A DNA stretch of 64,000 nucleotides from positions 31,871,211-31,935,210 of the forward strand of contig NC_052350.1 of assembly GCF_009727055.1 (NCBI RefSeq), read 5' to 3'. The notes beneath the pieces were generated by a model. It made no database searches. It saw nothing but the letters and a program-made list of their open reading frames with translations, and had not been told where the DNA came from. The position numbers and the translations under genes were made by a program. How positions within the stretch are numbered: position 1 is the stretch's first letter; each line of letters starts with the position of its first letter. Origin of the DNA: Benincasa hispida. Lineage: Eukaryota; Streptophyta; Magnoliopsida; Cucurbitales; Cucurbitaceae. This document shows, one piece after another, positions 42,893 through 63,757 of the stretch.

Positions 42893-43336
42893 TTACCCAT
42901 TGATGTTCATTAAGATTTCCCCCTTGTGCACATCAATTTGTACGCGACCGGTCGAGAGGAATGGTCGTCTCAATATGATGAGCGCATCTTCATCCGCTTT
43001 ATAATCCAAAATGATGAAGTCTGCCGGCAAGATGAATTTATCAATTAAGATTGCGGCGTCTTTCAACTCTCCTTCAGGGTGTATTCGAGATTTGTCTACG
43101 AGCAGGAGAGTTTCCTTCGTGGGCGTGAGTGTGCCAATATCCAATCGTTTGAAGATTGATAACGACATTATGTTTATACTCGCCCCAAGATCACATAGTG
43201 CTTGGCCATTGTAGACCCCTCCAATGGAGCATGGTATCGTGAAGATTCCTGGGTCACACATTTTTGGTGGGATCATAACATTTTGCATTACTGCTATTGT
43301 TATGATATTGTCTTCATCATTTTGTTTCTCTTTCAA
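42893..43336 (-). pseudogene. Athila-type aspartic protease
   Basis: An open minus-strand block. Key parts are VMIPPKMCDPGIFTIPCSIG, GVYNGQALCDLGASINIMSL and then PEGELKDAAILIDKFILPAD, LIILRRPFLSTGRVQIDVHK and GEILMNING. The D-L-G-A-S-I-N-x-M motif in place of D-S/T-G is what I know of the Athila lineage, and R-P-F-L-x-T-G is the matching flap and C-terminal motif. It would process gag-pol. It follows gag in order, but the frame is cut off by stops on both sides. Confidence 0.8.
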
Positions 43337-43596
43337 TCTTTGGGGGCATAGTGGTAGTTAGACTTCTTCTGTCTCATGTTTTAGAGGCTCGAGAGTGGAC
43401 GCAACTTCAGGGTTCATCTTCTCGGGTTTATCCGAATTATAAGTCAACGGGTCTTCGGTTGTTACCGCATTCAAGTTGGTCGTGATGGGTTCCTCCCCTA
43501 CTTCTGCAATCATTTTGTCGCTTAGCAAGGAGACTGCTAAGCATTGTTTCTTCCCTGTATCCCCAGTGTTGTGCGGAAGCTCAGTTAAGCTCGGCA

Positions 43597-44863
43597 AAGC
43601 TCCTTGTGGTCTATTTTTGAGCTCGCCTGCAATTTGTCCCAGCTGAATTTCGAGATTTCGGATGGACGTTGCTTAATTCTGAAGCACTGATTCATTTTTC
43701 TCAATGTACTGCTTCAATAAGCTCTGTAAGGACGAAGATTGCGGTGTTTACGAGCTGCTGGTTTGGTTATGTGTTGGATCGTTGTTTCGTGGGAAAAATC
43801 CGGGTGGCCCTTCTTTTTGCGCCACTGGTTGGAAGCTTTGTTATTGATTTTTCCATGCGAAATTTGGGTGGTTTCTCCACCCGGAGTTGTATGTATCAGA
43901 ATAGGGATTATTCTTTATGAAACATACTGACTGCGGATTATCTGAGCATTCTTCCATCGGATGGCCGTCTCCACAGATGACACAATTTGCGGTCGTTTGA
44001 GCAATTGCGTTGACGTGCCCTTTCTTTGATCCCGTGTTGTTAATTGTGATGCCTTGTATCAAACTCATCATCGTAGTCATCTAGTTCTGAAGGGATGCGA
44101 TGGCCCCATTGTTTGCATCATTGTCTTTAATCCTTAATCTTTGATCGCTTTCTTGTCAATCCTCGTGATTTTTGGAAATGCGATCAAGTATATTTTTGGC
44201 CTCCTCATGTGTTTTGTCAAGCAAACCACTAGATGCTGCTATATTGGCAGCGGTCTGCGAAGCAGGGTTCGGTCCTTGATAAAAGATCTCCATTTGCAAG
44301 TAGTCTGGTAATCCGTTGTATGGACAGTCTCTTACCAGCCTCTTAAACCTTGCCCAGGCATCGCTGAGCGATTCGTCCGTTTCTTATTCAAAATTTGTTA
44401 TTAATTTCCTTCTCCTAGCATTCTCGGTTGGTGGGAAATACTTCTTCATAAACTTTTCCACCACTTGTTCCCATGACGTTATCTCCCCCGGTTCGAGAGA
44501 ATACGCCCATTTTCTCGCTTGATCGCAAAAGGAAAATGGGAACAAAGTGAGTTGAACTTCCTCGGTGGAGATATTCGGGAACATAAAAGTGTTGCAGATT
44601 TCTATGAAGCTCCGGAGGTGGCCGTGTGGGTCTTCACCATGCCTCCCTCCAAACTGTCCAGCAGTCTGGATCATCTGCAGCATTACCAGTTTCATTTCAA
44701 ACCTCGATTCGTCTAACGCCAGCCTCATGATTCCTGGAGAGAAATTGTAGAGGTTGGGCGACGCATAGTCCCGAATGGGTCTATTGCGATCATTCGCCAG
44801 AAGGATGGAGTTGGCCATTATATTGTTCGCGTTTTCGGCCCTTTCTTCCGGTTGTTCCGCCAT
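43597..44863 (-). pseudogene. Athila-type gag with zinc knuckle, interrupted by point stops
   Basis: It starts at 44863 with MAEQPEERAENANNIMANSI then LLANDRNRPIRDYA, the same start as the gag at 63904. The Retrotrans_gag core follows: GRHGEDPHGHLRSFIEICNT, FPFSFCDQARKWAYSLEPGE and VVEKFMKKYFPPTENARRRK. It continues past a TAA with ETDESLSDAWARFKRLVRDC and GPNPASQTAANIAASSGLLD. A knuckle CVICGDGHPMEEC sits near 43985, followed by NPYSDTYNSGWRNHPNFAW. Nearly all of gag reads in one frame, broken mainly by TAA, TAG or TGA in place of Gln or Trp codons. Inactive. Confidence 0.85.
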
Positions 44864-45029
44864 TCTTGGGGTTCTATCTGATTGTTGGCGGTTATCTTTT
44901 AATCGTCGTCGGAACGTCCTTTTAGTCTCTGGGTCGTAATTCGCCAGAGATTGAGAGCTGCAAAGAAATCAGAAAAATTACCGTTAGCACATTGATTTGT
45001 CGAAGTCCCCGGCAATGGCGCCAAAAACT

Positions 45030-46535
45030 TGATGCGTTATTTTACATGATGAAATTATGGAATGAGATGTGTTGATAGAAATGCACTGATCAACAAGTTT
45101 TCTTAGTGGAAACCAAGTACAAACCCCACTGAGTTTTCTGGTAAGTCCAGGGTCGAACTCAAGGACTAGGGAAAACAGTATTCGGTGATAATTTCTAAGA
45201 AGACCTTGTGGTAACCAAATAAATCAAATAGTTGTTTGTGTTGTTGTTTGCGGTATAAAAATAAATGTATGCGACAGATTTGAGAAAAGTTTGATTATGC
45301 GGTAGATACACTGAGTATGCGGAGGAATGGGTTGAGAAGGTCTTTCGCTAGCGTTTCCCAGGAATGTGTCAAACTATGCGATCATGCAACACTCATGCGA
45401 CAACAGATCATTTTCCAATGCAAATGTGGTGCTCCTAGTTCTAGGACGCATGTGTTGAATGCAACAATGTCCATAGAGCTTATTCCTAAGTCTCTACTAT
45501 TTTCCTATGCGATGACACAATATGCACACAAAGACAAGGTGACTGCACACAATCATATCTTATCTCTAGGATGCATGCGATGCGTTAATAGCAAACAGTG
45601 CTTATTCCTAAGCTTCTATCTCTTGATTATGCGTTCTAACCTGACTCTCCCGAGCCTAGATTCTAACCTGACTTTCCCAAGCCTAGATCTATTCTAAGAC
45701 TACCCTCCCGAGTATCTCTAATGGACGAATGAAGCATACATAATACAAGATAATCGCATAGAATGAAGATCCCCAATTATGCTAGCTAAGTGTTTCTCAA
45801 CCCATTCAACAGATTTAGCTACTCATGCGTAATAAACAGAGAGTGAACAGATATAAAAAAGTAAATTCCATTTCTATAGATAAGTTTGAGTACAAAATGA
45901 CAATGGAAGATAAGGATAGAGAGCCTGGTAGCAATCCCTTACTTCCCAAGGCTTTTACACTGTCAACTCTATTTGGAACTGTCCAAACTGTCCGAACTCC
46001 TTTTCTAAAGGTTTCCTTCGGTATTTATAGAGCTTCGGGGTGAAAGGTGGCTTCTCTCTTATGATTGCACGGATGAGATGGCTTTAATTCTCTGACTGAT
46101 GCCAAATATTTGTCACCGAAAAGCTGAGTGTATTTGTTATCGTTAGCGGCTTGTCAACTTAATTTGGACTTGACCGTCATCAACTTTCTGTCCCATCGTG
46201 ATTTATTACGCTTTTCACCCAGATGCGCCCACCAAGTTGCGCCAACTCTATGCGGTAATCCTTCTTGAGCATAGGTTGCAAGCACAAATCACCGCAAAGC
46301 CTTGTGGTAACGTTGTGCTCGACCATTGATTTTTTGTGATCGTGCTTTCCGCCTTGCGTCAACGCATATTCTGCATAAAAATACAAAAATTAACTATTTT
46401 TATGCGATGGACGCATGCAACCGCAATGTTATGAACTTAATGCTTTTTGGACGCAATCTAACATATTTTATCAACGAAAACCTTCATTGTTTAATAACTT
46501 AGCACTATAATAACGTGCATTTCTGCCTGTTATCA
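45030..46535 (-). repeat. 5' LTR of the Athila element
   Basis: On the plus strand TGATGCGTTATTTTACATGA to TTTCTGCCTGTTATCA, 1506 bp. It has the TATA context TATTTATAGAGCTTCGGGG near 46021-46040, which on the minus strand reads CTCTATAAATA. Its U3 start (plus 46508-46535) is the complement of the hairpin TGATAACAGGCA-GAAA-TGCACGTTATTA. Confidence 0.85.
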
Positions 46536-47814
46536 ATTAGCCTCATTAATATAAAATTCTCTCATTTGATTTGAACAATTTAAATCATTCCTCATTACTA
46601 TCCTTTAGTGAGCTAACAAGGAGACCTTATGGACCTACAAATTAGAAGCTCTAATTATATGAGATTAATTTATTAAACTCCTTTAATTCAATTAATCAAT
46701 ATTCATTAACTACCAATGACTCTACTAAAGACGATAGTTGCACTCTTCGCACTGTAGATATATTTCTTTGTCCATGGATACAACCAATCAATAGAGCGAT
46801 GACCCTTCACAAATGTTCATAACTATAACTGGGTCAAAATATCGTTTTATCCCTACAGTTACATCTAACTCCTTAAGTACCACTGATTCCTCTAATGAAC
46901 AAACAGTTTGTTGGACTATAAACTAACACCTCTCGGGCCAATGAGAGGTTGAGGCCTCATTGTTCAAGACCCGAAACCAGCTATTAAAGGAGCAATTTAT
47001 CTACTTTCCCAAGGAATGGAAAGAAGCGAATTCCATCTTGTATAGTTGTGTTCCCAACTTCCTAATCAAACAAATCCCCAAAATGATAGTCTTATTGAGT
47101 CGACCATCATGGCCACTCTCACCCATATAGATCAAAGGACTACCGTCATGAACAAGAGTTCACAAGTCACTCAAGATTAAGGTCAAGTCTCCTATAGTCA
47201 TCCTAGTGAAACATTAGTTTCTACAAGTAACAGTGTTATAAAGTGAAATTAATTATTTTGTGGCCTGGTCTATGTATAAACTCCTTTATACATGATACTC
47301 CTATTCACATGCATGAACAATATGGTTCATATTGTTTGTAATGCTTACATCTTATGTAACAATTACAAAGTGGGTCGTATCCGTAGTGTTACTAGAATAA
47401 GGCACCCAACCTTCATCCATTTACTACAGACCTTTTAGGTTATTACTTAAACATGAACCACCTGTATGTTAACCACATGTTGTTCAAGTGACATATAACC
47501 TTGGACATTAGTTTATTAGATTGAATTAATGTTGTCTAAATGTCAAATAAAATACCATTGATTTTATTAGATAAATAATTTGTGTTAACAAAACTAGAAA
47601 CCATAAGATACACTAGATTTAGGACATTAGTCCCAACAATACCATGGGTAATGTTCCTGAAGTTAAATCTTAGAATTATATCAATTTTGTTGTTGTATTT
47701 ATGTTATTTCCAATCTTTTCTTAATTTTTATTATTCTTTGTTTTTTTATTTGTTGTTGTGCTAACAGATAGTTTTTGGTGTGAATATGTATGGATGTGAA
47801 CATTTCTCTGCCAC

Positions 47815-48215
47815 TAATAGACAGTGATAAACTCTATCACCGTCTATCAGGTATACAAAGTGATAGAGCTCTACATTGATAGATAGTGATAGAGCTTTAT
47901 CACTCTCTATAACAGTGATTTAGCTCTATCACTAGTGATAGACTGTGATTTAGCTCTATCGCTGTCTATATTCTATCAATATCTATCAATTATACAAAGT
48001 GATAGAGCTTCATCACTGTCTATCATTGATATAAAGTGATAGAGCTCTATCATTCTCTGTAATAGTGATTGAGCTCTATCATTAGGGATATACTGTGATT
48101 GAGCTCTATCATTGTCTATCACTAATAGACAATGATAAAGCGTTATCATTGTCTATCAGTGATAGACAATGATAGAGCTCTACACGGATAGACAGTGATA
48201 GAGCTCGATTTATCA
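47815..48215. repeat. Palindromic minisatellite, GATAGAGCTCTATCACTGTC-type units
   Basis: Roughly a dozen imperfect units that mix AGTGATAGACAGTGATAGAG with the complement CTCTATCACTGTCTATCACT. Each unit holds the palindrome AGAGCTCT and can fold on itself. Related units recur at 54180-54263 and 61725-61805. Confidence 0.85.
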
Positions 48216-48219
48216 ATAT

Positions 48220-48746
48220 TCTTGAATTTTGGTCAAACTAATATTCAATCTGTATTCCAAATAAAAAAAGATAAAGATGTTAGTTGGTATCTGTCTTTGG
48301 TTAAAGATTCAGGGACTAGGCATCCTTTAGTTGTTCATGTTAGTCATCATTCTGTAGAATGATCTTGTAGTGGTATTAGTGGTGGAGGTGGTGACCGATT
48401 GCTATGTTTAATTCTTCTTCTAGTTCTTCAAATGATCAAGTTATATGAGATGTTGGTTTTAATGGTGATTTGAAGGAAAAGATGTATTTAGAAGTAAAAA
48501 AATATTATCTAAGTGTTTTTAGGTAATAGTAGTGAATAAGAATGTTCAATTCAAAGCTACACGATGAAATTCAAAGTCACTTGAGTTGAAATATTTGTAA
48601 GAAGGTTGTCAATGGTATGATCGAGTATCTCATTACAAGAAGAGTGAGTTGTGGATGCTTAGAAAGTACATTTCAAACTCTAATTGTTCAATGAATACAA
48701 CTTAAAATTGTCGTAGGCAAGCTTCTTCATCTTTAATTGGGGATTG
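48220..48746 (+). pseudogene. MULE transposase N-terminal exons, part 1
   Basis: One plus frame reads WYLSLVKDSGTRHPLVVHVS (about 48280-48340). Later come DLKEKMYLEVKKYYLSVF, WYDRVSHYKKSELWMLRKYI and CRRQASSSLIGDC just before the Athila LTR at 48747. The last phrase corresponds to H-R-Q-A-S-S-x-x-I-G of MuDR-type transposases, after the Zn-ribbon-like N-terminal domain. Several stops and frame changes. The gene continues at 53919 after the LTR nest. Confidence 0.6.
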
Positions 48747-49451
48747 TGATAACGGGCAGAAATGCACGTTATTATAGTGCTATGTTCTTAAATAATGTTG
48801 GCTTACGTTGATAAAATATGTTAGATTGTGTCCAAAAAGCATTAAGTTCATAACATTGCAATCGCATGCGTTCATTGCATAGAAATAGTTAATTTTTGTA
48901 TTTTTATGCAGAATATGCGTTGACGCAAGGCGAAAAGTGCGATCACAAGAAATCAACGGTCGAGCGCAGCATTACCGCAAGGCTTTACGGTGATTTGTGC
49001 TCGCAATCATCTGCTCAAGAAGGTTCCGCATAGAGTCGGTGCAACTTGGTGGGCGCATCTGGGTGAAAGGCATAATTAATCATGATGGGACAGAAAGCCA
49101 ATGACGGTCAATCCCGAATTAAGTTGACAAACCACTAACGATAACAAGTACACTCAGCTTTTCAGTGACAAATATTCGGCGTATTAGTTAGAGAATTAAA
49201 GCCATCCCATCTGTTCAATCATAAGAGAGAAGCCGCCTTTCACCCCAAAGCTCTATAAATACCGAAGGCATCCTTCAGAAAAGAGGTTCAGCCGGTTCAG
49301 CATATTCAGCCAGTTCATAGTTTAGCCTTGTCCATAGTTTTCCTTTTTATTTTAAGGCAGAGCAAGAGAAGGGAAGAGACATCGGAAGATCGCTCAGGGC
49401 AACTCGAGAGAGAACCCGGAGGCATAGAAAGCAGAAAGCGGGCCGATTCTT

Positions 49452-51269
49452 TGATAACGGGCAGAAATGCACATTATCATAGTGCTAAGTTCTTAAACAA
49501 TGGTGGCTTGTGTTGATAAAATGTGTTAGATTGCGTCCAAATAGCATTAAGTTTATTATATTGCGGTCGCATGCGTTTATCGCATAGGAACAGTTGATTT
49601 TTGTATTTTTGTACAGAAGATGCGTTGACGCAAGGCGGAAATTGCGATCATAGGAAATCATTGGTCGAGCTTAGCATTACCGCAAGACTTTGCGGTGATT
49701 TTGTTCGAAAAAATTTTCTCAAGAAGGATTGCCGCAACTTGGTCGGCGCAACTTGGTGGACGCATCTGGGTGAAAGACATAATTAATCGCGATGGGATAG
49801 AAAGCTGATGACGGTCGAATCCGAATTAAGTTGACAGCCGCTAATAATAACAAGTACATTCAGCTTTTCGGTGACAAATATTCAGCGCATCAGTCAGGAA
49901 TTAAAGTCGTCCCATTTGTGCAATCATAAGAGAGAAGTCGCCTTTCATTCTCGAAGCTCTATAAATACTAAGGACAACCTTCAGAAAAAGGGTTCGAAAA
50001 ATTCATAAGTTCGGATCAGAGCTCTGCTCGTCTTTGTCCATAGTTTTCCTTTTTATTTTAAGGCAGAGCAAGAGAAGAGTAGAGACGCCAGAGATCGCTC
50101 AGGGCAACTCGAGAGAGAACTCTGAGGCGCAGAAGTAGAGAGCAGGCCGACCCTCGCGAGAGCGAGATTATCTTTTGAACACGAGTAGAAAAATAGTGTA
50201 AAAGCCTGAGAAGCAAGAGATTGCTACCAGGCTCTTTATTCTATTCTTGCATTGTTGTTTGTACTTCATCTTTATATTTATACAATGGAAGTTCTTATTC
50301 TACATCTGTTCACTCTCTTAGTACGCATGAGTAGCTAAACTAGTCGAATGGGTTGAGAAGAACTAAGCTAACATGACCTAGGAAGTTCATTGCTTGCGAT
50401 TGTCTTGTGTTATGCTGTGCCAAATATCCCTTTAGAGCTACTCGAGAGAGAGTCTAAAGAAAGAACCTAAGACTCGAGAGAGCTAGGTTAGAATCTAGAC
50501 TCGAGAGAGCAAGATCTGTCTCTTATACACATCTAGATGTGTATAAGAGACAGGTGTTATGCTGTGCCAAATATCCCTTTAGAGCTACTCGAGAGAGAGT
50601 CTAAAGAAAGAACCTAAGACTCGAGAGAGCTAGGTTAGAATCTAGACTCGAGAGAGCAAGATTAGAACTGCATAAACAAGAGATAGGGACTTAGCGATAA
50701 ACTCTGTTTGCCAACCTGCATCGCATGCATACTAGATATAGGAATGATATTATGTGATCGCCTTATTTGTGTGTGTGTCATTTTTTCATCGCATAAATAA
50801 GAATAGAGGCTTATATGTAGATTCTATAGACTTATCGCATATATCGCATGCGTTCTAGCATTAGAAGCCGTAGCATTCGCATCGAGAGATGGTTTACTAT
50901 TGTATGCATGTTGCATGATCGCAAAGCATGAATGCATTCTAGGGAGTGTTAGCCAAAACCCTTTCTCAACCCGTTCACCACATATTCATGTATCTTCCAT
51001 TTATCAACTCTTTTCAAACTCAGCCGCATTTGTTTATTTTTCATTACCACAAACAACAACCTCAACAACTATTGATTTATTTGGTTACCGCAAAGTTTTC
51101 CTAAAAATTACCACCGCATACTGTTTCCCTAAGTCCCTGAGTTCGACCTTGGACTTACCAGGAAACTCAGTAGGGTTTACACTTGGACTCTATTGAGAAA
51201 ACTTGAGTGCTCAATACATTTTCACCATCGCATTTCATCCACAATTCCACATCATAAAATAACGCATCA
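49452..51269 (+). mobile_element. Athila solo LTR B, nested in LTR A
   Basis: It starts TGATAACGGGCAGAAATGCA and ends AAAATAACGCATCA. LTR A resumes after it with TCTCGCGAGAGCGAGACTATC, matching B's own interior near 50152. It contains the adapter artefact at 50516-50553 with a 109-bp duplicated flank, so its true length is about 1.67 kb. Confidence 0.75.
50516..50553. other. Nextera mate-pair junction adapter (assembly artefact)
   Basis: Exact 38-bp mosaic-end palindrome. The 109 bp before it (50407-50515) are repeated exactly after it (50554-50662). Confidence 0.97.
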
Positions 51270-51915
51270 ATCTCGCGAGAGCGAGACTATCTTTTGAACA
51301 AGAGTAGAAAAGACAGTGTAAAAGCCTGGGAAGCAAGAGATTGCTACCAGGAGGCTCTTTATTCTCTTCTTACATTGTTATTTTGTATTTCAACTTTATA
51401 TTTATACAATAGAAGTTCTTATTCTACATCTGTTCACTCTCTTAGCACGTATGAGTAGCTAAACTTATCGAATGGGTTGAGAAGAACTAAGCTAACATGA
51501 CCTAGGATCTTCATCGCATGCGATTATCTTGTTTTATGTTGTGCTCACACCCCTTTAGAGCTACTCGAGAGAGAGTCTAAAGAAAGAACCTGAGACTTGA
51601 GAGAGCTATGTTAGAATCTAGACTCGAGAGAGCAAGATTAGATCTGCATAAATAAGAGATAGGGTCTTAGAGATAAGCTTTATTTGTCAACCTGCATCGC
51701 ATGCACTCTAGAGATAAGTATGATATTATGTGGTCGTCTTATTTGTGTGTGTATCATTTTGTCATCGCATAAATAAGAATAGAGGCTTATGTGTAGGTTC
51801 TATAGACTTATCGTATATATCACATGCGTTCTAGCATTAGAAGCTATAGCATTCGCATCAAGAGATGGTTTACTATTGTATATGTGTTGCATGAACGCAT
51901 CCTAGGAAGTGTTAG

Positions 51916-53596
51916 TGATAACGGGCAGAAATGCACGTTATCATAGTGCTAAGTTCTTAAACAATGTTGGATTGCGTTGATGAAATATGTTAACTTGCGT
52001 CCATTAAGCATAAATTCTATAATATTGCGGTCGCATGCGTTCAACACATTAGAACAGTTGATTTTTATATTTTTGTGTAGAATATACGTTGATGCAATGC
52101 AAAGATTACGATCATAGGAAATCATTGGTCGAGCACAACTTCATCGCAAGGCTTTGTGTTGATCGTGCTCGCAACATTCGCCCAAGAAGGGTCGCCGCAA
52201 CTTGGTCAGCGCAACATGATGGGTACATCTGGGCGAAAGGCCAATTAAGCATGATGGGACAGAAAGTTGATGACAGTCGAATCCAAATTAAGTTGACAGC
52301 CGATAACAGTCATAAAGTACATTTAGCTTTATCGGTGACAATTATTCGGCGCATTAGTTAGGAATTAAAGTTGTCTCATCTGTATAACTAGGAGAGAGAA
52401 GCCGTCTTTCACCATGGATGCTCTATAAATACCAAGGGCATTCTTCAGAGAAGGGGTTGATCAATTCACGAGTTTAGCAGTTAGATTTCATACTTCAATT
52501 CACACGCTTTTGTTCTTAGTTTTCTTTCATTTTAAGGCGGACGCGAGGAAGGAAGTTGTGTCAATAGATCGTTCCGGTATGCTTGGGAGAGCACTAAAAG
52601 CTTCCAGGACAGAGAAAGGGCCGACGTTTGCGGAAGCGGGAACATATTTAGAACAGAATAAAGATTTCAATGTTAAAAGCCTCGGTCAGCAAGGAATTGC
52701 TACCAGACTCTCTACCTTTAACTTCCATAGTCATTTTGTACTCAACTCATTTATAAAAATGGGATTTTCTTCTCTATATTTGTTCACTCTCTATTATTCA
52801 CGCATAAGTAGCTAAATCAGTTGAATGGGTTGAGAAGCATTTAGCTAGCACATCTAAGGAATCTTCATTCTTTGCGATTATCTTGTTTATGTATGCTTCA
52901 TTCATCCATTAGAGATACTCGAGAGGGTAGTCTAAGGACAGGATCTAGACTTGAGAAGGTCAGGTTAGAATCTAGACTCGGGAGAGCCAGATTAGAACAC
53001 ATAATCAAGATATAGGAGCTTAGGAATGAGCACTATTTGTTATCAATGCATCACATGCATCCTAGAGATAGGATATGATTGTATGCGGTCACCTTGCTTT
53101 CATGCATTTTGCAACATCGCATAGGACAAGAGTAGAGACTTAGGGATAAGCTTTATGGACACTTTTGCATCCAACATATGCGTCCTAGACTTAGGAGCAT
53201 CGCATTTACATTGGAAAATGACTTGCTGTGCATGGTTGTAACATGATCGCATAGTCTGACGTATTCCCGAGTAATGCTAGCTAAAGATCTTCTCAACCTG
53301 TTCATTGCATGCTCATTGCATCTATCAACGCAATTGTCTTTTCTCAATTCCGCCGCATTTGTTTATTTATATTTCATCAACACAAACAACAACCCACAAC
53401 TTATTTAATCGGTTACCGCAAAGCTTTCATAAAAATTACCAACGCAATCTGTTTTCACAAGTCCCTGTGTTCGACCCTGGACTTACTAGGAAACTCAGAG
53501 GAATTTACACTTGGATTTCGCTGGGAAACTTGAGTACACAATGCAATTCTATCAACGCATAGCATCCAAATTTCCACTTCATAAAACCAAGCATCA
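51916..53596 (+). mobile_element. Athila solo LTR C, nested in LTR A
   Basis: It starts TGATAACGGGCAGAAATGCA and ends AAAACCAAGCATCA. The flanking 5-mers GTTAG (51911-51915) and GTTAC (53597-53601) differ at one base. LTR A resumes with CCGAAACCCTTCTCAACCCG, as predicted from LTR B (AAAACCCTTTCTCAACCCG near 50958). 1681 bp. Confidence 0.85.
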
Positions 53597-53918
53597 GTTA
53601 CCGAAACCCTTCTCAACCCGTTTACCGCATACTCATCGCATCTTCTGTTTTATCAACTCTTTTCGAAACTCCGCCGCATTTGTTTATTTTTATTACCGTA
53701 AACAACAAACCAAACAACTATTTGAGTTACCAGTTACCGCAAAGTTTCTTGAAAATTACCACTGCCAAACAGTTTCCCAAGTCCCTGAGTTCGACCTTGG
53801 ATTTACCAGGAAACTCAGTGGAGTTTATACTTGGATTCCGCTGAGAAAGCTTGATTGTTCAATGCATTTCCATCACCGCATTTCATTCCATATTTTCATC
53901 GCATAAAATAACGCATAA

Positions 53919-54263
53919 AATTGCTTGAATGAGGATTTTAGGTTTATCTCTATTGATCACTCCCTTCCTTGAGATATTGTTTATAAGGCTCGTATTAAGC
54001 TTGGTGTTAATATTAGTTATCAAAAATCTTGGAGGGCAAAAGAAAATATATTAAGATCATTAAATGGTGATACAACTAATCATATAACTTGATTCCACAG
54101 TTTTTTGAAAGGTTGAAAGAAATGAATCCAGGTATTGTTACAAATGAAGTATTCTTCTTATAAAATTTACACCATTGTCTATTATAGATGGACTATGATA
54201 GACATCTATCACTGTCTATCAGTTATAGTTGTGCATCACTGTCGATCACTATCTATCAATAAT
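53919..54263 (+). pseudogene. MULE transposase, part 2
   Basis: It resumes after the LTR nest with KARIKLGVNISYQKSWRAKE and NILRSLNGDTTNHI, then F-L-K-G and N-P-G traces (about 53985-54140). The Y-x-K-A-W-R-A-K/R-E pattern is typical of the transposase segment before the catalytic core. A minisatellite scrap follows (54180-54263), then the copia-type LTR. Broken by stops. Confidence 0.6.
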
Positions 54264-55999
54264 AGTTGTGTTGGGATTGATGCCCTAAAGTCTCGTGTCC
54301 TGTAGTTTGTAAACAGTTTGTACGAACGCTTGTGATGTATAATAGATGATATTTACTTCATTTCTTGACTTTGCACATTTGGTGTTTTATTTGCTTTACA
54401 ACAAATAGATAAACTTAAAATCCCCAATTGTCTTTATGTAACTTAAGCATGTATGTGATGACATACAAGTGGATCATGTCTTAATGATAACCAAAATGGT
54501 CTGTAGTATATGGATATAGGAGGGAAACCTTATCCTGGTAATGCTATAGATGCGACCCGCTTTGTGAAATAGTTACAAGTGTTGTGACTTGTCACAGATG
54601 GTCTGATCCTGATCATTTGTGTAGGGGACATGCGAGCGAGGGCGTCCTATATAAAGAGTTTGTATAAGACCTGACCACGAAGTGTTACGTCTTGTCATAT
54701 AACCCCGTTCATGATAGAGATTTCACTTCACTAGGATGACCATAGGTAACATGACCTCAATCCTAAGTGAGTTGGGAACTCCTGCCATTGAGGGTGGTCC
54801 TTTGATTTGCTTGGGTGCGGTGGCCAGAACGCCGACTCAAACCTACCACTTTGGGGATTTGTCTGATTTAGGAGTTGGGAACTTAGCTACACAAGATGGA
54901 GTTCACTCCTGCCCCAAAGCAGGAGTAAGTAAATAGATTGCTCCCTTAAGGGTTGATCCCGAGGCTTGAACGATGTGGCGCCACACACCTTCTCATGGCC
55001 TGAGAGGTGTTCACACATAGTAGGACTATGTTATATTGTTCATTAGAGGGATCAGTGGTATTTAAGAAGTAAGATGTAACTATAGAGACAAAACGGTAAA
55101 TTGACCCAGCTGTACTTACAAGCATCTATGAAGGGTCATTGTACTGATGATTGGTTATATCCGATGGACATAGAAATATATCTGTGGTAAGAAGAGTTTA
55201 GTTGTCAGTCTTTAGTGGAATGACTGGCAACTAACGGATGGTGGATATTGTGGCTAAAGAGTTTAGTCAGTTATTCACGTACCGTTGAAGCTTCGAGCTA
55301 TAGGTTCATAAGGTCCCCTTGGTAGCTTGGATACAAGTTGAGAATCTGTTTTTGGCTCAGTTTGAAATGTTCAAATTGACAAGAGGGAATTTGATTATAT
55401 ATGATATAATTGAACTAGTTAATTATATATATAATTGACTTTATGTATGAGATACATTAATTTGGAGGAAATTGGATATAAATATGATTTATATCTAGTG
55501 GAGGAAAAATATTATGGTTAATATATGATATTAAACCATAGGTTATGAATATAATGTGATTATATTTATTATTTATTAATTGGACGGTTATGGGATAATT
55601 GGTCGGCATCTCTTCTGTTTCTGTAACTGATGAGTAAGATGAAGAATTGTTTTGAGACGCTTAAATAGCTTACGGTGTGTTTCAATTCTAGAGGGTCATC
55701 GCTTAGTAAATCAGAGCATATATGTAAGACCCTAACATTAAATCTAAAGTGGGAAGTTAAATAGAGAAGAAAAATCGAGAAGAAAAATCCTAAGTAAGGA
55801 TATTGGAACAAAGGGAGGAAAACATCAAAATCATCCAAAAAGGGTGACCAAAATCCAAACGCCTATGAAGGACTTAAAACATGTGGACGCAAGAAGGCAT
55901 GGAGGATGGAGGCAAGAAAACTTTTTAAAAAAAATGGCTTAAGGGTTGCATACAACCAACGCAAAGGCATACATGAGCCATGCGGACACGGACAGCAAG

Positions 56000-56470
56000 C
56001 ATGCGTTGAGTGAAGCATGCTAGGCGCGCCGGCTAGGCGTCAAGGCCAAACGCACAGGCCATACGCCAAGCGTGTAGGCCTTGCATCGAGGCTAAGTGCA
56101 CAAGCCATGCGCCAAGCGCGCAGGCCATGCATTGAGGCCAAGCACATAGGCCATGCGCCAAGCGCGCAAGCCATGCGTCAAGGACAAGCACGCAGGCCGT
56201 GCGTCGAGCGCACAGTTCATGCGTTGATGGTGTATGCCGTGTGCCTACCTATGCATCGAATGGACAAGCGAGCAAGCCATCCTATACGTCGAATCACTGC
56301 TGAGTCTGCCGAGCAACCATGTGTCGATGCGCCAGGCCAAGTGCACGCCCATGCGGCCGAGCAAGCGTGCAAGCGCCTAGGTCACACACCATGCATCGAT
56401 GGTCAGCACCATGCGTTCACGCTTAGTAGGCCGAGTAAGCACACCTAGAAAGCCATGCGTCGAGGGTGAG
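56000..56470 (+). repeat. GC-rich minisatellite with GCCATGCGCCAAGCGCGCAG units
   Basis: About ten imperfect units of roughly 30-40 bp built on GCCATGCG-CAAG-GCGCAGG and ATGCRTCGAGG phrases. It gives an open frame (56017-56448) rich in Arg, Gln and Ala that is a by-product of the repeat, not a gene. CpG-rich, in strong contrast to its AT-rich surroundings. Confidence 0.85.
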
Positions 56471-58044
56471 CGGCCACCCAATGCATTGGTGATGGCCAAC
56501 TTATGCGTTGGCTAAGTTGGACTTTGATGAAGGAAATGTGAATTGCTATGCATCAAGGACAAAAGGTGAGGCTAATTGATGGAAAACTTCAAGGGAGGAT
56601 GCCAAGGGTATACGAATATAAGACTTAAACAATTTAAGTAGAGAAATATGTGAGGTATTTAGGTGATTTAGGTGGCAAAAAAAGGATCACATAAAATTCT
56701 AGTAAGAGGTGGCTAAGAGAGATTTCATGCAATTGAAGTCTTATCACCCCAAGTAGGAGGTGGGTGAAGGAGATTTCATGCAGAAAAGGAGACTTTGGCT
56801 GGCAAGCTGAAATAAGAACAACTCAAGGCTAGGCTAAGGATAGGCTGGGTAGACTGAATGTTGGCAGTTCCAAAATGAGACAAATGGGAGTTGTGTTATC
56901 AACATGGGGTGAGTCTGAAATGGCTATAAATAGGGGAGTTGGGCAAGGGGAATTCATTCATACCAGCACCTAAATTGTATGTTGAGAGCATATTAAGAGA
57001 GTGACGTTTGAGTTATTAGGCTGCCAAGTTGATTGGAGATCAAAAGAAACAAGGTTGCGTTGGTGAGGCACCTAGTCAACCGGATGCACAACCAGCCCAC
57101 ACCCTGCGCACACGCAGTACTGTGTCCGTCCGTCCACGCGCGCATTGCTCGACGTATCCCGTGCACAGCCCAACGCAGCAGCCTCCCCCGTGCAGCGCAT
57201 CACGCACAGCACAACGCACGCCTAAATGCGCCAGCTCCCTGTGCGATGCAGCATGCCCACTCTGCCTACTGCCCAACGCCCAGCTGCCTATTTCGGACCA
57301 AATAACCTCTAAAGAGGCTAATTTTGGTATTTTGGCTAATTTTGAGTAGGGTAAACTGGTATTTTCAATCTATAATGGTATTTTGGTTAGTTTGACGTTA
57401 TTTATTGATATAACAAATATTAATTGAGGAATTTCCATTAATATGGAGGAATTCACAAGAAAGTAGTCTAAAGGTGATTTTAGTGGAAAAACTTGCTGAC
57501 GGTGAGTGTTTACTTAGTTTTATGCTTTGATATGTGAATAAATGCATATGTAAGTACAAAATACATGCTTATGATGTTATGTTGATTGCCATGATATTGT
57601 TTGTGATATTGCTATGGAAACTGAGATTATACCCAGATTACATAAGTTAGCATGCTTAATAAATGGTGCTTGGTGGGAAAATATAGTCGGCCTCGATCGG
57701 CGGGAAATAATAATCGATGACAACCGGCGGGAAATATAGTCAAGTACCTAAGCATGACTAACGGGATAAAGAATTGTCGGTGTGCACATTGGCGGGAAAA
57801 GTGGGTTATAGGAAAGTTTCCATAAAAATTTCTGATAATGTGTCCATGATATGAGCATGCCACGTATAGCATGGAACTGAAGGATGTTGATTGAATGAAT
57901 ATATACATGATCATGCATAAATTATACTGAGATTATGATTATATGATTGATTTCCCAAAAACATGATTTGCAAAGTGATTATTATTCTAAAAGAAAAACT
58001 CATTGGGCTTAGTAGCGCACACTCTTCCAAATGTTTTCTTATAT

Positions 58045-58070
58045 CCCCCCCCCCCCCCCCCCCCCCCCCC
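58045..58070. repeat. Homopolymer run of 26 C
   Basis: An unbroken C run where the related LTR copy 1 has only a short CCCC (ATAATCCCCCTCAGGTAGC near 13950). Its length is unreliable in any short-read assembly. Confidence 0.9.
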
Positions 58071-59119
58071 TCAGGTAGCAAAGCAAAGCAATTCAGGAAA
58101 GGAGTCTACTAACCACCATCACACCAGGACTTTGTAAATTCTCAGGGCACGGTTCGCGATCATGTAAAAAAAAATATAGGAAAAATTGAACTATGTATCT
58201 GAAAGTTAGATAAAGTGTTGTAAACAATGTTGAAATCTTTAATAGAGGGGGGAGGGGTGGGGGAATGTTAAATTTAAATGTTGTCTTGGAATAGTGGTGT
58301 ACCCTCATGCTCCCTTCCCCGGTCTTGAGGGTTAAGGCTAGGGAGGGTGTAACAATATACGATAGTGCTATTTACTGAACGATCGCTTACACCTGCGCAC
58401 ATTACTTACTAAATGATCACTTATCTTTTTACTAAACAATCGTTTAGTGTCACCACCCTGCCCCAGACCACCTTCTTTAGCCTAGAGGAAGCGTGACTGT
58501 AGCAGTTACCAAACTCTTGGGCTGACACTTACTACCTAATAACTCTTGTAGAATAAACTCTGATACCAATTATAATTCATATGCAACGGACGTCTTTAGG
58601 CCCACAATTTATTAACTTAGAACATAATATGTTTAGAGTCATTTACAACACTAGATTTACAAGTCCCAAAACCCACAAACCCTTATCCCTATATGAACAA
58701 TAGTAAACATATGTACAATATTAACCGTAACCACCTAGCAAACGGTTTACAAGTCTTTTAGTCCTTTAGTGGCGGAGTAGATACTGAGCTATCTTCAAAG
58801 ATTGACCGCTACCTGTGGGGGAGAAAAACAAAACATTTTGAAAACGGGGTGAGCTTACGCTCAGTGCAGTGACCGAGAAAACATAGTAAATTCTCATGCA
58901 TAATTTCAGAAGATAGTTTTATCTGAAATATAATTTAATGCAGCATAAACAATTTCCAAGCGTAATGTATATTAAATTGTTTTAAACATAAAACAGTAAA
59001 ATCATTTCTCAAATCAAAGTACTGTATAATGGGTAAAATAATCCCAACACTAATTGCTAGTCCAGAGAGAATCCTTTGTTCAATCTCTGACTTAGTTCAC
59101 CTGTGGCCACATTAGGTAC

Positions 59120-59303
59120 TACTGCTCAGATACCTTCTCCTTGTACTTCAGTATCGAGCTATTAGGATACCTTCTCCAACGTACTTCAGTATCCCATTGG
59201 TTTGGTACCTTCTCCAACATACTTCAGTACCAATAGATACCTTCTCCTTGTACTTCAGTATCTAGTTGGGTGGATGCCTTCTCCTTGTACTTCGGCATCG
59301 CAT
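59120..59303 (-). repeat. Minisatellite of GATACCTTCTCCTTGTACTT units
   Basis: Five imperfect units of 30-40 bp (GATACCTTCTCC-TGTACTTCAGTATC plus a spacer). Each unit begins and ends with a GATAC/GTATC pair, so it can form a small hairpin. Confidence 0.8.
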
Positions 59304-60423
59304 TTTACCAAAACTATTTATAAACAACCTTTCTCTTTAAAGCATGTCCAGTATAACACATATACAACGTGGCTTTAAAGAGGGTAACGCATGCTGGATA
59401 AAATCAATACATTTACATATGTAAATAATATTTCAACAGTATGCATGAGTTCAAACTTGCTTGGAAACCAGTTTGTAAAATTAGTAGGCATGAGAATTAT
59501 TTTTGCAAATATGCTTTCTGTAAATGTTGTAATCCAAAACAGCTTAAAAACATTTTAATTCGAAAACATTTTAGCCACTCACCTTGATTTCTTAGGAGCT
59601 TTTCACTCTAGTGGCTCATCGGGCTCCTTTTCACCCCTAGAATCTAGATTCAATTTACAACTTAGATTACTCATAGTTCTAAACCTTATTTAAAAATACT
59701 TCCTTCTACAAACTTATTCTAAAATGTCTTAAAAATATTATCCTAAACTTTCACCTCAGAATTCCTCGTGGTTTGGCTGGAATCTCAAAATATTCAAGAC
59801 TGGCCCAGACTAATCCGACAGTCTGACCCTTCTGCCTTCTTCTCAACCTCCAGCCCAGTTCCTTTGAGCTTTTTCCTCTGGCAGCCCTATTCTGCAAACT
59901 AGACTTCCAGATCTTTGGGATGGCTTATCCAAATGCACGAGTAAATTGGAAGATCTCCTCGTCCAAAGTTGACATATTCCTTTGAACTCTCACTATCCTC
60001 TACTTTCTCTACGAAAATTATGATTTTTGAAAATGAAATCCCAACTCCCTATATATAGGCATTCAAATTGCTCGTGGGATTGACAGCACCTACTTGGCTG
60101 GATGGCCAAATGTTTAATCCTCCCTTTATCAACATAAGCTGACTTTACCTTAGGTCAATGTGTTCTTCCAAAATGCATCCAACACAATTTCTTAGGGTTT
60201 AAGAATTTCTCTTAATCGGACACCTAAATTTTAATTGACGTTTGTCCTTACGTCTTCAAGATTTGTTTGTATTCAAATTAGGGTTTTTAAATGCATAATC
60301 CATAAGAACGCGGCCAAATTCAATGCATAAATACTTACCCGGCCGTTCGATGCATAGGCGAGGCCCTTTGATCGTGTGGGCGTGATGTTCGAATGCAGCA
60401 CCGGACAAGGCTTGGCTGATGCA

Positions 60424-60780
60424 TAGGTTGCTCTCGCTCTCTCCACTCTCGCTGGTGTCACTCTCTCCACTCTCGCTGGTGTCGCTCTTTCCCACTTCTT
60501 CGCTCATAATCTCGCTCTCTCCAACTTTCTTGCTCATAATCTCACTCTCTCTAATCTCGATCTCTCCCACTTTCTCGCTGGTCTTGCTCTCTCCAATTTC
60601 GCTCTCTCTCATTTTCTCTCCAATCTCGCTCTCTCTACTCTCGCTCTCTCTCACTTTCTCGCTGGTCTTGTTCTCTCCAATCTCACTTTCCCCCATTTTC
60701 TCGCTCAAAATCTTGCTCTTAATGATCTCGCTGGTCTCGATCTCAATGATCTCGCTGATCTCACTCTGAACAATCTCGCT
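60424..60780 (-). repeat. GAGAGCGAGA-type purine array of LTR copy 2
   Basis: CTCGCTCTCTC/CACTTTCTCGCTGGTC units on the plus strand, the counterpart of 12045-12432 in copy 1. The long open frames here (Glu/Ser/Ile-rich on the minus strand, Ser/Leu-rich on the plus strand) are by-products of the repeat. Confidence 0.85.
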
Positions 60781-61821
60781 TTTAGCTACTACGAACATTG
60801 TTCGTCTCCGTGAAACTTCTACACGTTTTTTCCAGATTTTCCCCAAAATAATTTCCCATATTTTTCTCAGTTCTTCAATCCTTTCTTCAGCTATAACGCA
60901 TTTCACATAACTTCTCTATACTTAGCCGAATTTTTCCGAAATTTCCCAAACTCAATTTCCATATTTTTCTTTTTCAAATCCCCATTCCTTCTTCACCATT
61001 CCACACTAACTTTCTCATCAACCTACTTATTATACAAATTTCATTACAATTTTACCAACTAAAGCTCAACTTAATTTATTCAAAGAAAATCTACTTAACA
61101 CTTAGAAATTTCCTTCCCCTTAACTGAGGATTTAACTTTCACTTAGTTAATTCCCTTTAACACTTGCTTAAGTAAGGGAAATAGAAATCCGGATTTCACA
61201 TTCAGTGCTCGAGCTTTACTAAACGATCGTATAGACGATCGCTTAGCTTTTCCTACACGATCGTATACTTCACCTAAACGATCAAGCATTTTGTATATAC
61301 GAAAGATGAGTCTTTCTCCCACTAGCTTGATCATTGTATACAATCTCTTTTCCTCCTCCCCTCTACCAAATTCGAACAGAGCCCACTCTTTGGATTCTCA
61401 CTCCAAGAATACTGAGGGTTCCAAGTGGTGGTGTCATCCGTTTTCTTCATCTGTTCGTGTGGAGACTGTTCTTTGTAGAAGATTGGGTGTTGTTGAATGA
61501 TAGCTTTCCGTTCCAGCGAAAACGAGACTTGCTGTGAAGAAAGTCTTCAACTGATATGTTCTCTCGGTCTCTTGTTTATTTATCCTTTAAGGATGCCAGT
61601 AATTTAACACTGTTAATGCATATCTATATGTGTGAATGTATGTGTGGAAATTCTGTCACAATGATTTGGAAAGATCCGCTTCCGCTTATAGGTACTTTTG
61701 TATAAGAGTTCCTTCAAGTTGTGTATCACACTCTCTATCACTGATAGTCTGTGATAGACATCTATCACTATCTATTTACCAGTGATAGACAATGATAGAT
61801 TTGTTACCATTCTCACTAATA

Positions 61822-62077
61822 TAATTGTTTTCATGTATTTTTTCAAGAATGTACACTGCTTTAAAGATTGATGAAAATGGACATTTTAAATTATGTTTCA
61901 TGGCTATTGGTGCATCTATTGAGGGGTGGAGGTACTTTAGACCTACGATATATGTTGATGACACGTTTTTTAAGTCTAAGTTTGGTGGTACTCTATTATC
62001 AGCTTCAGCACTAGATGGAAACAATAATATCTTTCCCCTTGCATTTGCTATCATAGATTCTAAAAATGATGTGTTAT
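61822..62077 (+). pseudogene. MULE transposase catalytic-core fragment, part 3
   Basis: The plus frame reads HFKLCFMAIGASIEGWRYFR, then PTIYVDDTFFKSKFGGTLLS and DGNNNIFPLAFAIIDSKND. This is the MULE core context F-M-x-x-G-A-S-I-x-G-W-x-x-C-R-P-x-I-x-V-D-G-T-F-L-K. The usual D-G-T is D-D-T here and the Cys before R-P is Phe. The frame is open for about 80 codons up to the Athila LTR at 62078, which cuts it in mid-domain. Confidence 0.8.
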
Positions 62078-63733
62078 TAATAACGGGCAAAAATGCACAT
62101 TATCATAGTGCTAAGTTCTTAAACAATGTTGGCTTGCGTTGATAAAATATGATAAATTGCATCCATTAAGCATTAAATTTATAATATTGTGGTCGCATGC
62201 GTTCATCACATAAGAATGGTTGATTTTTGTATTTTTATGCAGAATATGCGATGACGCAAGGCGGAAATTGTGATCATAGGAAATCACTGGTCGAGCGCAT
62301 CATTACTGCAGGGCTTTGTGATGATCGTGTTTGCAAACATTCGCTCGAGAAGGATTGCCGCAACTTGGTTGGTGCAACATGGTGGACACATCTGGGTGAA
62401 AGGTTTAATTAATCACGATGGGACAGAAAGCTGATGACAGTCGAATCCGAATTAAGTTGACAACCGCTAACGACAACAAGTACATTTAGCTTTTCGGTGA
62501 CAAATATTCAGCGCATGAGTCAATGAATTAAAGCCATTCCATCTGTGCAATCATGAGAGAAAAGCCACCGTTCACCCTAGAAGTTTTATAAATACTAAAG
62601 GCATCCTTCAGAAAAAGAGGTTCCACCAGTTCACAAGTCTGTTCTTAGATTTTTCTTTTATTTTAAGGCAGATGCAAGAAGGGAAGGTTGTGCTCATAGA
62701 TCGTTCCCGTAAGCTTGAGAGAGCGCCGGAAGCTTCAAGGACAGAGAGAGGGTTGACGCCTGCGAAAGCAGGAACTTCTTTGGAACCAAATAAAGATTCA
62801 CAGTGTAAAAACCTCGGTCAGCAAGGAATTGCTACCAGGCTCTTTACCTTTAACTTTCGTTGTTATTTTGTACTCAAACTCATTTATAAAAATGGAATTG
62901 AATTCTCTATATCTGTTCACTCTTTGTTATTCACGCATGAATAGCTAAATCTGTTGAATGGGTTGAGAAGTATTTAGCTAGCACAACTAGAGAATCTTCA
63001 TTCTATGCGATTATCTTGTATTATGTATGCTTCATTCGTTCATTAGAGTTACTCGGGAGGGTAGTCTAAGGATAAGATCTAGGCTTGGGAAGGTCAGGCC
63101 AAAATCTAAGCTCGGGAGAATCAGATTAGAATGCATAATCAAGAGATATGAGCTTAGGAATAAACATTATTTGCAATTAACGCATCGCATGCATCCTAGA
63201 GATAGGATATGATTGTATGCGGTCACCTTGCCTTTATGCATTTTGCATCATCGCATAGGGAAAGAGTAGAAACTTAGGAATAAGCTCTATGGATACTTTT
63301 GCATTCAACACATGCATCCTAGACTTAGGAGCATCGCATTTGCATTGGAAAATGACTTGTTGTGCATGGTTGTAGCATGATCGCATAGTCTGAAGCATTC
63401 CCAAGTAACACTAGCTAAAGACCTTCTCAACCCCTTCATCCGCATACTCAGTGCATCTATCACACAATTGAATTTTCTCAAATCTGCCGCATTTGTTTAT
63501 CTTTCATTAACGCAATCAATAACAAACCAACAATTAATTGAGTTACCGGTTACCGCAAAGTTTTCTAAAAATTACCACTGCAACCTGTTTTCACAAGTCC
63601 CTGAGTTCGACCCTGGACTTACTAGGAAACTCAGTAGAGTTTATACTTGTATTTCGTTGAGGAAACTTGAGTGCTCAATGCAATTTCATCATCGCATAAC
63701 ATCCATAATTTCACTTTGTAAAACCAAGCATCA
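62078..63733 (+). repeat. 5' LTR of the right-edge Athila element
   Basis: 1656 bp. Collinear with LTRs A, B and C, for example TTATAAATACTAAAGGC near 62586 (TATA context), GAATTGCTACCAGGCTCTTT near 62826, and GAGTTCGACCCTGGACTTAC near 63604. The right end is fixed by the adjacent primer-binding site. Confidence 0.85.
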
Positions 63734-63739: not shown

Positions 63740-63757
63740 TGGAGCCGTTGCCGGGGA
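63740..63757 (+). other. Primer-binding site, tRNA-Asp type
   Basis: TGGAGCCGTTGCCGGGGA differs by one base from the perfect complement of the tRNA-Asp 3' end (TGGCGCCGTTGCCGGGGA). It lies 6 bp after the LTR. The mismatch would weaken priming, which fits decay. Confidence 0.8.

What the first reader, a model, noticed from the sequence alone, without database searches (positions are those of the whole stretch)
46508..62105. Every Athila-type LTR starts with a 28-bp hairpin with a GAAA loop
TGATAACGGGCA-GAAA-TGCACGTTATCA forms two 12-bp arms and a GAAA (GNRA-type) loop. It is present at 48747-48774, 49452-49479, 51916-51943, 62078-62105 and, on the minus strand, 46508-46535. The diverged minus-strand element at 24446-28616 starts TGATGACATGCA-GAAA-TGCATGTCATCT. 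There, two stem pairs have changed on both sides (A-T to G-C and G-C to A-T), and the G-A mismatch of the other copies is a proper pair. Paired changes suggest selection for the fold. It could serve integrase recognition of the U3 end, or act at the 3' end of the RNA, where U3 lies.
Basis: partly seen in the sequence, partly recalled or inferred. Interest (0 to 1): 0.75.

Follow-up and report, generated by a model that had tools for sequence, protein, structure and literature searches.

The report
Folded hairpin module at Athila primer
Copies of one kind of plant jumping gene begin with a small hairpin that is part of a larger fold around the start site of their second DNA strand, and the fold, rather than the letters, looks conserved; a similar fold is known in other plant elements.

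Summary
The hairpin is real and sits exactly at the LTR 5' end, with corrections: only one of five copies (51916) is letter-perfect, the stem is 11 pairs plus a G.A mismatch, and a further LTR family (25855, +) was missed. The 913-Mb host genome holds about 9,900 sites within 3 mismatches and about 11,700 of a looser pattern. Of 86 3'-LTR junctions picked without the hairpin, 79 begin with it. Between LTR clades the first 28 nt are 76% alike, the next 28 only 34%. Compensated pairs favour a conserved fold, but tree-aware tests are mixed: only about four clades are independent.

[quoted passage not shown] A third hairpin (P0) ends 17-18 nt before U3 in 50 of 63 rows. Integrase recognition is unlikely. 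I favour a fold of genomic RNA at the PPT/U3 junction; P0 stalling reverse transcriptase so that RNase H cuts at U3 is a testable guess. Closest known: the Sirevirus inverted repeat around the PPT.

The parts
51916..51943 (+). P2 hairpin, family A, exact copy (TGATAACGGGCA-GAAA-TGCACGTTATCA), first 28 nt of solo LTR
   Evidence: fold -12.5 kcal/mol
48747..48774 (+). P2 hairpin, family A, 1 substitution
49452..49479 (+). P2 hairpin, family A, 1 substitution
62078..62105 (+). P2 hairpin, family A, decayed (3 substitutions, loop AAAA)
   Evidence: fold only -2.0 kcal/mol
46508..46535 (-). P2 hairpin, family A, 2 substitutions
28589..28616 (-). P2 hairpin, family C (TGATGACATGCA-GAAA-TGCATGTCATCT)
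   Evidence: -17.8 kcal/mol
25855..25882 (+). P2 hairpin, family B (TGATAACTTGTA-GAAA-TACAAGTTATTT), not in the finding
   Evidence: -11.0 kcal/mol
51957..51966 (+). P1 right arm (TTAAACAATG), family A; its partner lies upstream of the PPT at 3' LTRs elsewhere in the genome
48788..48797 (+). P1 right arm, family A (1 change)
49493..49502 (+). P1 right arm, family A
62119..62128 (+). P1 right arm, family A
46485..46494 (-). P1 right arm, family A
25893..25902 (+). P1 right arm, family B (ATTTAGATAT)
   Evidence: sequence; register
28566..28578 (-). P1 right arm, family C
   Evidence: sequence; register
45030..46535 (-). 5' LTR of family-A element 40043-46535; TSD CTAAT at 46536-46540 and 40038-40042
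40043..41553 (-). 3' LTR of that element; its start, and so its PPT junction, is lost at adapter sequence
45006..45023 (-). primer binding site TGGCGCCATTGCCGGGGA
44384..44968 (-). gag fragment, Athila-like
   Evidence: (PF03732, 2.2e-08)
42893..43357 (-). protease-like open frame of the element (name from recall; no Pfam hit)
51916..53596 (+). solo LTR, family A, TSD GTTAG/GTTAC, nested in another LTR
62078..63733 (+). 5' LTR, family A, followed by PBS 63740-63757
24446..28616 (-). solo LTR, family C, TSD GTACT both sides, interrupted by the family-B LTR
25855..27791 (+). LTR, family B, followed by PBS 27798-27815; 3' end inferred from the PBS

Best explanation
The LTR-start hairpin (P2) is one helix of an RNA module around the polypurine tract at the 3' LTR of Athila-type Ty3/gypsy elements. 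SHOWN by sequence: in order, P0 (TGCTTG-AGGA-CAAGCA and family-specific extra pairs, 7-9 bp), the left arm of P1, the PPT (..TTTGGGGGTG), P2 (12 positions per arm, GNRA-type loop) beginning with the first base of U3, a linker, and the right arm of P1 about 39-52 nt inside the LTR. P1, if formed, therefore encloses the PPT and P2. INFERRED: selection acts on a molecule that still joins PPT and U3, most simply the genomic RNA before or during minus-strand synthesis, and the fold helps define the PPT/U3 cut that makes the U3 end. MORE SPECULATIVE: P0 stalls reverse transcriptase 17-18 nt past the junction, which puts the trailing RNase H on it.
For: P2: genome-wide abundance with reversed-pattern controls of 0-1; 79 of 86 junctions chosen by P0+PPT alone start with it; loop GAAA in 67 of 78; identity between clades 76% in nt 1-28 against 34% in 29-56 (63 rows); cells of P0+P2 paired 88.5% vs 83.2% shuffled and 20-42% slid; P2 paired fraction 0.885 vs tree-aware null 0.71 (0 of 400), pairs 8-21 (0/400) and 11-18 (1/400) by covariation score; seven hand-picked subfamily states, 72 of 84 Watson-Crick cells vs 24 with permuted columns. 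P1: left and right arms of the same clade pair best, rank 1 of 24 assignments; 89% of cells paired (G.U included) in 58 rows of clades A, B, C with letters differing by clade; in 18 of 27 rows no other window of the following LTR pairs as well. P0: outer pair 10-29 is CG, UA or AU in 38 of 71 rows; 3' edge to U3 is 17-18 nt in 50 of 63 rows. Other plants (LTR starts inferred from the PPT): L005 has a 12-bp inverted repeat at LTR nt 4-15 (chance about 3e-5, extrapolated), L018 a 6-bp one from nt 7 (chance about 0.02). HIV-1 RT work: the two active sites are 18-20 bp apart (PMC7831940, passages).
Against: Same-branch co-changes not in excess (3 vs mean 1.9, P = 0.29); pooled covariation score reached by 31 of 400 nulls, and the top column pair (9-28) is not a partner pair. 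Only four clades, and B and B' share one P2 sequence; the tree joins them by long branches, which the program flags as unreliable. P0 pair 10-29 is unpaired in 33 of 71 rows and 9-30 in 25; the P0 core is fixed by my search anchor. RNAalifold alone recovers only 4 pairs of P0 and 9 of P2. Thermodynamics: P2 forms (mean pair probability 0.85) but the PPT is unpaired at only 0.33 and P0 pairs at 0.47. P1 arms are AT-rich: B' left with A right scores better (-7.9) than B' with B' (-5.9), and the runner-up assignment is close (-36.5 vs -38.2); L095 hardly forms P1. SIV/HIV authors argue that RNA structure at PPTs is unlikely to affect priming, because PPTs act in an RNA/DNA hybrid (PMC3616985, passages).
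Confidence: 0.5

Rival explanations
1. P2 is a DNA-level integrase recognition element: an inverted repeat extending the terminal attachment site.
For: P2 starts at the exact cDNA end; attachment sites are the conserved ends of LTRs (PMC3601003, passages).
Against: The U5 ends are not palindromic (3-5 of 12 pairs in the four ends tested); read inwards they share only 3-6 terminal bases with the U3 ends (sequences). P1 and P0 lie partly outside the LTR and are absent from the cDNA end that integrase sees.
Confidence: 0.12
2. The palindrome is kept perfect by mutation, not selection: hairpin-templated correction during replication or reverse transcription copies one arm onto the other.
For: Such correction of quasi-palindromes is known in general (recall). 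It would give paired changes in few steps, and co-change on the tree is weak.
Against: The G.A mismatch persists across family A. The loop is conserved (67 of 78 GAAA). P1 arms lie about 60 nt apart and also match by clade.
Confidence: 0.13
3. The module serves another step of the full-length RNA: packaging or dimerisation, nuclear export, stability or 3' end formation.
For: The fold lies in the 3' region of the genomic RNA, and retroviral RNAs use such stem-loops (general knowledge).
Against: It brackets the PPT and U3 start exactly, with a 17-18 nt spacing from P0 to U3 in 50 of 63 rows, which these roles do not require.
Confidence: 0.17
4. Shared ancestry only: the ends of these LTRs are conserved sequence and the pairing is incidental.
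For: One genome, four clades, mixed tree tests; similar hairpins in different clades could also reflect recombination.
Against: Six extra Watson-Crick pair states in seven hand-picked subfamilies (P = 4e-5 by column permutation); nt 29-56 are unalike between clades while 1-28 stay paired; unrelated stems at the same place in two other plant contigs.
Confidence: 0.08

Closest known systems
PPT-flanking inverted repeat of Sireviruses and almost half of the other plant Ty1/copia elements studied (Bousios et al. 2010, PMC2829016; abstract and passages)
   Same: Left arm borders the PPT, right arm lies inside the 3' LTR (28 bp in on average in Sireviruses, 18 in the others), PPT and U3 start in the loop, and arms match within each element.
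   Different: There Ty1/copia, with arms averaging 28 bp (Sireviruses) or 19 bp. Here Ty3/gypsy Athila-type, arms about 8-13 bp, plus a separate GNRA hairpin inside the loop starting at U3 nt 1 and a third hairpin upstream.
PPT-containing hairpin noted for Sire and HIV in Benachenhou et al. 2013 (PMC3601003; passages)
   Same: Same idea. They call for a systematic search in other LTR elements; this is such a case.
   Different: Plant Metaviridae were left out of their models.
Conserved PPT/cPPT RNA structure in SIV and HIV-1 (PMC3616985; passages)
   Same: Structured RNA at the plus-strand primer site.
   Different: There the G-rich PPT part is itself paired, and the authors doubt a role in priming.
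Athila / Diaspora / Calypso lineage (PMC1142308 and PMC6317226; passages)
   Same: PBS just beyond the LTR, PPT next to the 3' LTR, gag.
   Different: The words hairpin, palindrom- and inverted repeat do not occur in the main text of either paper.

Membership tests
Athila-type Ty3/gypsy element | Athila-like gag | tested here: met
   Retrotrans_gag PF03732 2.2e-08; homologues in Humulus and Cynara among 8 hits; the name Athila itself is from recall
Athila-type Ty3/gypsy element | PBS of the tRNA-Asp type (recalled motif) | tested here: met
   3 sites with 1 mismatch each, 6 nt after an LTR end (one of the three ends inferred)
Athila-type Ty3/gypsy element | 5-bp target site duplication, TG..CA ends | tested here: met
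   CTAAT and GTACT exact, GTTAG/GTTAC 4 of 5
Athila-type Ty3/gypsy element | Reverse transcriptase falls in the Athila clade | not tested
   No RT frame was read
PPT-flanking inverted repeat (Sirevirus kind) | Left arm borders PPT, right arm inside the 3' LTR, complementary within each family | tested here: met
PPT-flanking inverted repeat (Sirevirus kind) | Element is a Sirevirus / Ty1-copia | tested here: not met
   gag and PBS are of the Athila kind; works like it, is not a member
PPT-flanking inverted repeat (Sirevirus kind) | Several PPT copies upstream of the 3' LTR | not tested
   Not searched
GNRA tetraloop hairpin | GNRA loop closed by a stem | tested here: met
   GAAA in 67 and GAGA in 1 of 78
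Known Rfam family | Match at gathering score | tested here: not met
   0 matches in the window; the 3' junctions themselves, which lie outside the window, were not scanned

The most novel reading that the evidence does not exclude
Athila-type elements carry a built-in ruler for making their U3 end. A hairpin (P0) 17-18 nt upstream of the PPT/U3 junction stalls reverse transcriptase so that the RNase H site, about 18 bp behind, lies exactly on the junction, while P1 and P2 hold the PPT and fix the first base of U3. The PPT cut would then be set by RNA architecture as well as by the purine sequence, and the arrangement would recur across plant Ty3/gypsy and Ty1/copia elements with unrelated letters.
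Probability: 0.2. Interest if true: 0.85.

Novelty: new variant of a known kind. Interest (0 to 1): 0.6.

Why it matters
How reverse transcriptase picks the exact PPT/U3 cut, which makes the end that integrase later uses, is still argued mainly from the purine tract itself (my understanding of the field). A fold that brackets this cut in an abundant plant Ty3/gypsy lineage, with a 17-18 nt spacing shared by four clades, makes an RNA-architecture contribution directly testable on a template of about 120 nt. It would also extend the Sirevirus PPT inverted repeat to the other plant superfamily, and give a marker for LTR 5' ends when annotating Athila elements.

Tried and rejected
Cross-species DNA: hairpin patterns in viral contigs found 0; gag in viral contigs and genome contigs found no relatives; the PBS motif found 0 in viral contigs and 23 in genome contigs. 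Of those 23, four were followed up. L005, L011 and L018 look like plant sequence in bacterial assemblies; L022 was not used. No LTR start could be placed in L011. Print: sequence-word searches and topic searches listed no paper that I recognised as reporting this hairpin in Athila; only a library of open-licence PMC papers was searched, most hits were seen as listings, and Wright and Voytas 2002 was not read. Hammerhead-like resemblance (TGATGA...GAAA) was dropped: too few bases for stem II (recall) and no Rfam match in the window. Strand test: C>T (wobble-keeping) and G>A (pair-breaking) forms at two CpG pairs number 1627 and 1537 with the intact form counted in both; of the first 100 places listed, 24 and 19 are changed (counted by eye). 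LTR control TG 120, CA 136 at 33 CpG sites. The bias is too small to decide RNA against DNA. TGATA[AGT]G starts behind this P0 motif: 14 sites, so no further large family there; TGTTG starts: 0.

Rows dropped: 7 of 86 junctions fail the hairpin filter (L088, L105, L126, L136, L150, L151, L156); by eye L126 and L150 look like indel versions of the hairpin and L136 like a hairpin with its middle deleted. L091 (2-nt longer loop) was left out of the ungapped counts. One search had counted L156 as a pass. In one search eight rows identical to others were dropped; A2 has 71 rows, the tree 63 (only loci with long enough flanks), A3 57 (clade B' and L127 left out) and A3 was not counted, because its gap placement breaks the P1 register. 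86 of the 100 listed places were read; the other 14 were not fetched. Four further stretches (L170-L173), chosen by hairpin, were fetched and not used. The seven subfamily states were hand-picked. The count 50 of 63 for the 17-18 nt spacing is the sum over clades (17 of 26, 17 of 19, 12 of 13, 4 of 5).
Full report
WHAT IS THERE. The motif is at every coordinate given, but four of the five family-A copies carry 1-3 substitutions, all of the C>T/G>A kind expected of old methylated copies. The family-A stem is 11 Watson-Crick pairs with one G.A mismatch at positions 9-20. The LTR ends are fixed by target site duplications (CTAAT, GTACT, GTTAG/GTTAC with one mismatch) and by primer binding sites 6 nt after LTR ends, so the hairpin begins with base 1 of U3. 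It interrupts the family-C solo LTR 24446-28616 (-). The 40043-46535 (-) element carries a gag of the Athila kind. The 3' LTR start of this element is lost at sequencing-adapter sequence. I found no intact PPT/3' LTR junction in the window: the P0 motif, with up to 2 mismatches, occurs no more often than by chance (4 against 4.8 expected).

CHANCE. At a random place in sequence of this composition, >=10 of 12 pairs occurs at 7.4e-5 and >=11 at 5.5e-6 per position. Of 880 GAAA-centred 28-mers in the window, all five with >=10 pairs are LTR starts.

GENOME SCALE. The window lies in a 913-Mb genome. With up to 3 mismatches the family-A 28-mer occurs 4,896 + 4,963 times (reversed control 0). A looser pattern that bars G at position 8, and so intact family A, but leaves inner stem positions free occurs 5,940 + 5,807 times (control 0 and 1); the two sets overlap where family-A copies have mutated at position 8. 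To avoid choosing by hairpin, I anchored on the conserved pre-PPT motif and PPT (TTGAGGACAAGC-N6-20-TTTGGGGG; 1,498 + 1,442 sites, control 0) and read 86 of the first 100 listed junctions. 79 of 86 begin with the hairpin. In 78 ungapped ones the loop is GAAA in 67, AAAA in 8, GAAT, TAAA and GAGA in 1 each, and 76 have at least 8 of 12 Watson-Crick pairs.

CONSERVED BLOCK. A tree of flanking sequence (63 rows) gives four clades, A, B, B' and C, joined by long branches (0.36-1.29 changes per site; the program warns that such joins are often false). Between clades the first 28 nt are 76% identical and the next 28 nt 34% without gaps.

COVARIATION IN THE HAIRPIN (P2). Pair states seen: 5-24 A-T or G-C; 6-23 A-T or G-C (2 rows); 8-21 G-C, T-A or A-T; 9-20 T-A, G-C (2 rows) or unpaired, as in family A; 11-18 C-G or T-A. 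88.5% of cells of the two-helix structure (P0 and P2) pair, against 83.2% after shuffling and 20-42% after sliding; covariation score 0.207 against 0.123 and 0.019-0.063. The number of pairs with a change on both sides (7) is no more than in shuffles (mean 7.1); the number of cells with such changes is (114 against 46). With seven hand-picked subfamily states, 72 of 84 cells are Watson-Crick against 24 for permuted columns, and six extra Watson-Crick states have P = 4e-5. Against: parsimony on the tree shows only 3 same-branch co-changes (P = 0.29). In a null that re-places each column's changes on the tree, the paired fraction is exceptional (0.885 vs 0.71, 0 of 400), pairs 8-21 (0/400) and 11-18 (1/400) stand out in the covariation score and 5-24 in corrected G (8/400), but the pooled score is reached by 31 of 400 and the best column pair of all is a non-partner pair, 9-28. 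I read this as good but not decisive evidence from one genome.

THE LARGER FOLD. Reading 3' LTR junctions showed what the window alone could not. Just upstream of the PPT lies a stretch complementary to LTR positions about 39-52, in clade-specific letters: A TTGTTTAA with TTAAACAA, B ATATCTAAAT with ATTTAGATAT, C TGATTCTAA with TTAGAATTA (one G.U), B' TTGTTC with GAACAA plus a mismatch. This stem, P1, would enclose the PPT and P2. Same-clade arms are the best of 24 assignments of left to right arms (-38.2 against -36.5 for the next). 89% of cells pair, G.U included, in 58 rows. In 18 of 27 rows no other 40-nt window of the following 1.1 kb pairs as well with the left arm; in L095 the arm pairs hardly at all. 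P0, the hairpin TGCTTG-AGGA-CAAGCA, is conserved in the search anchor itself, so only its outer pairs are evidence. Pair 10-29 is C-G, U-A or A-U in 38 of 71 rows and unpaired in 33. The usual stem is 7 bp in A, 9 in B, and 8 in C and B'. In spite of this its 3' edge is 17-18 nt before U3 in 50 of 63 rows.

OTHER PLANTS. Bacterial assemblies with what looks like plant contamination gave two more junctions, with LTR starts inferred from the PPT. L005 (Streptomyces clavifer record) has TGA-TAAGTCCACAAA-31 nt-TTTGTGGACTTA right after its PPT, and by eye an 8-bp hairpin before it. L018 (Candidatus Burkholderia humilis record) has GGCATA-TT-TATGCC from LTR nt 7 and TTGCTTG-AGGA-CAAGCAA before the PPT (by eye). 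The stem letters of their LTR-start hairpins are unrelated to families A-C. The chance of the L005 repeat is about 3e-5 (extrapolated), of the L018 one about 0.02. Their lineages were not determined beyond the PBS.

MECHANISM. P1 joins internal sequence to the LTR across the PPT, so a molecule with both must be the one selected. That excludes the finished cDNA end and the 5' LTR, and makes integrase recognition and promoter roles unlikely as the whole reason; U5 ends also lack the hairpin (4 tested). The genomic RNA during minus-strand synthesis is the natural candidate. [quoted passage not shown] the wild type behaved differently (PMC7831940, passages). If the Athila RT is alike (not known), stalling at P0 would place RNase H at or near the junction. 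This is inference. Against it, the SIV/HIV authors consider RNA structure unlikely to affect PPT function in a hybrid (PMC3616985, passages), and predicted folds leave the PPT only about one third unpaired.

COMPARISON AND NOVELTY. The Sirevirus inverted repeat around the PPT (PMC2829016, abstract and passages) is the nearest relative in layout, and Benachenhou et al. asked for a search in other elements (PMC3601003, passages). Here the lineage is Ty3/gypsy, and two extra hairpins, one exactly at U3, are part of it. I found no description of this for Athila in searches, which cover only open-licence PMC papers and were mostly seen as listings. I rate it a new variant of a known kind.

Noticed in passing
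window 6989-7026, 41563-41600, 41722-41759, 50516-50553: Four exact inverted pairs of a 19-bp transposase mosaic end (CTGTCTCTTATACACATCT and its complement), recalled as the junction adapter of Nextera mate-pair libraries: assembly artefacts; two lie at the 3' LTR side of the 40043-46535 element and one in the LTR at 49452.
   Followed up: partly
window 47804-48205: Cluster of near-perfect palindromes (e.g. TCATTGTCTATCA..TGATAGACAATGA) repeated in both orientations; not part of the Athila LTRs, possibly subterminal repeats of a DNA transposon.
   Followed up: no
L005, L011, L018 (genome contigs records of Streptomyces clavifer, Blastococcus endophyticus, Candidatus Burkholderia humilis): Contigs with tRNA-Asp-type retroelement PBS and low G+C flanks: plant LTR retrotransposon sequence in bacterial assemblies. 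L011 has a 1205-aa gag-like open frame.
   Followed up: partly
protein P0004: An Athila-like gag is filed under Picosynechococcus sp. PCC 7002 in a protein database, probably contamination.
   Followed up: no
window 11930-13228 and 59634-60894; 13417-13960 and 57503-58049: Diverged copies of another repeat (75% identity, inverted; 79%, direct), not analysed.
   Followed up: no
G000 (913 Mb, window at C2:31871211-31935210): Assembly size fits my recollection of wax gourd (Benincasa hispida); not tested.
   Followed up: no
L026, L033, L043, L101 upstream of P0: A further small hairpin such as CTAAAG-GAAT-CTTTAG about 3-4 nt before P0 in clade-A junctions; by eye not in the B, B' and C loci printed.
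   Followed up: partly
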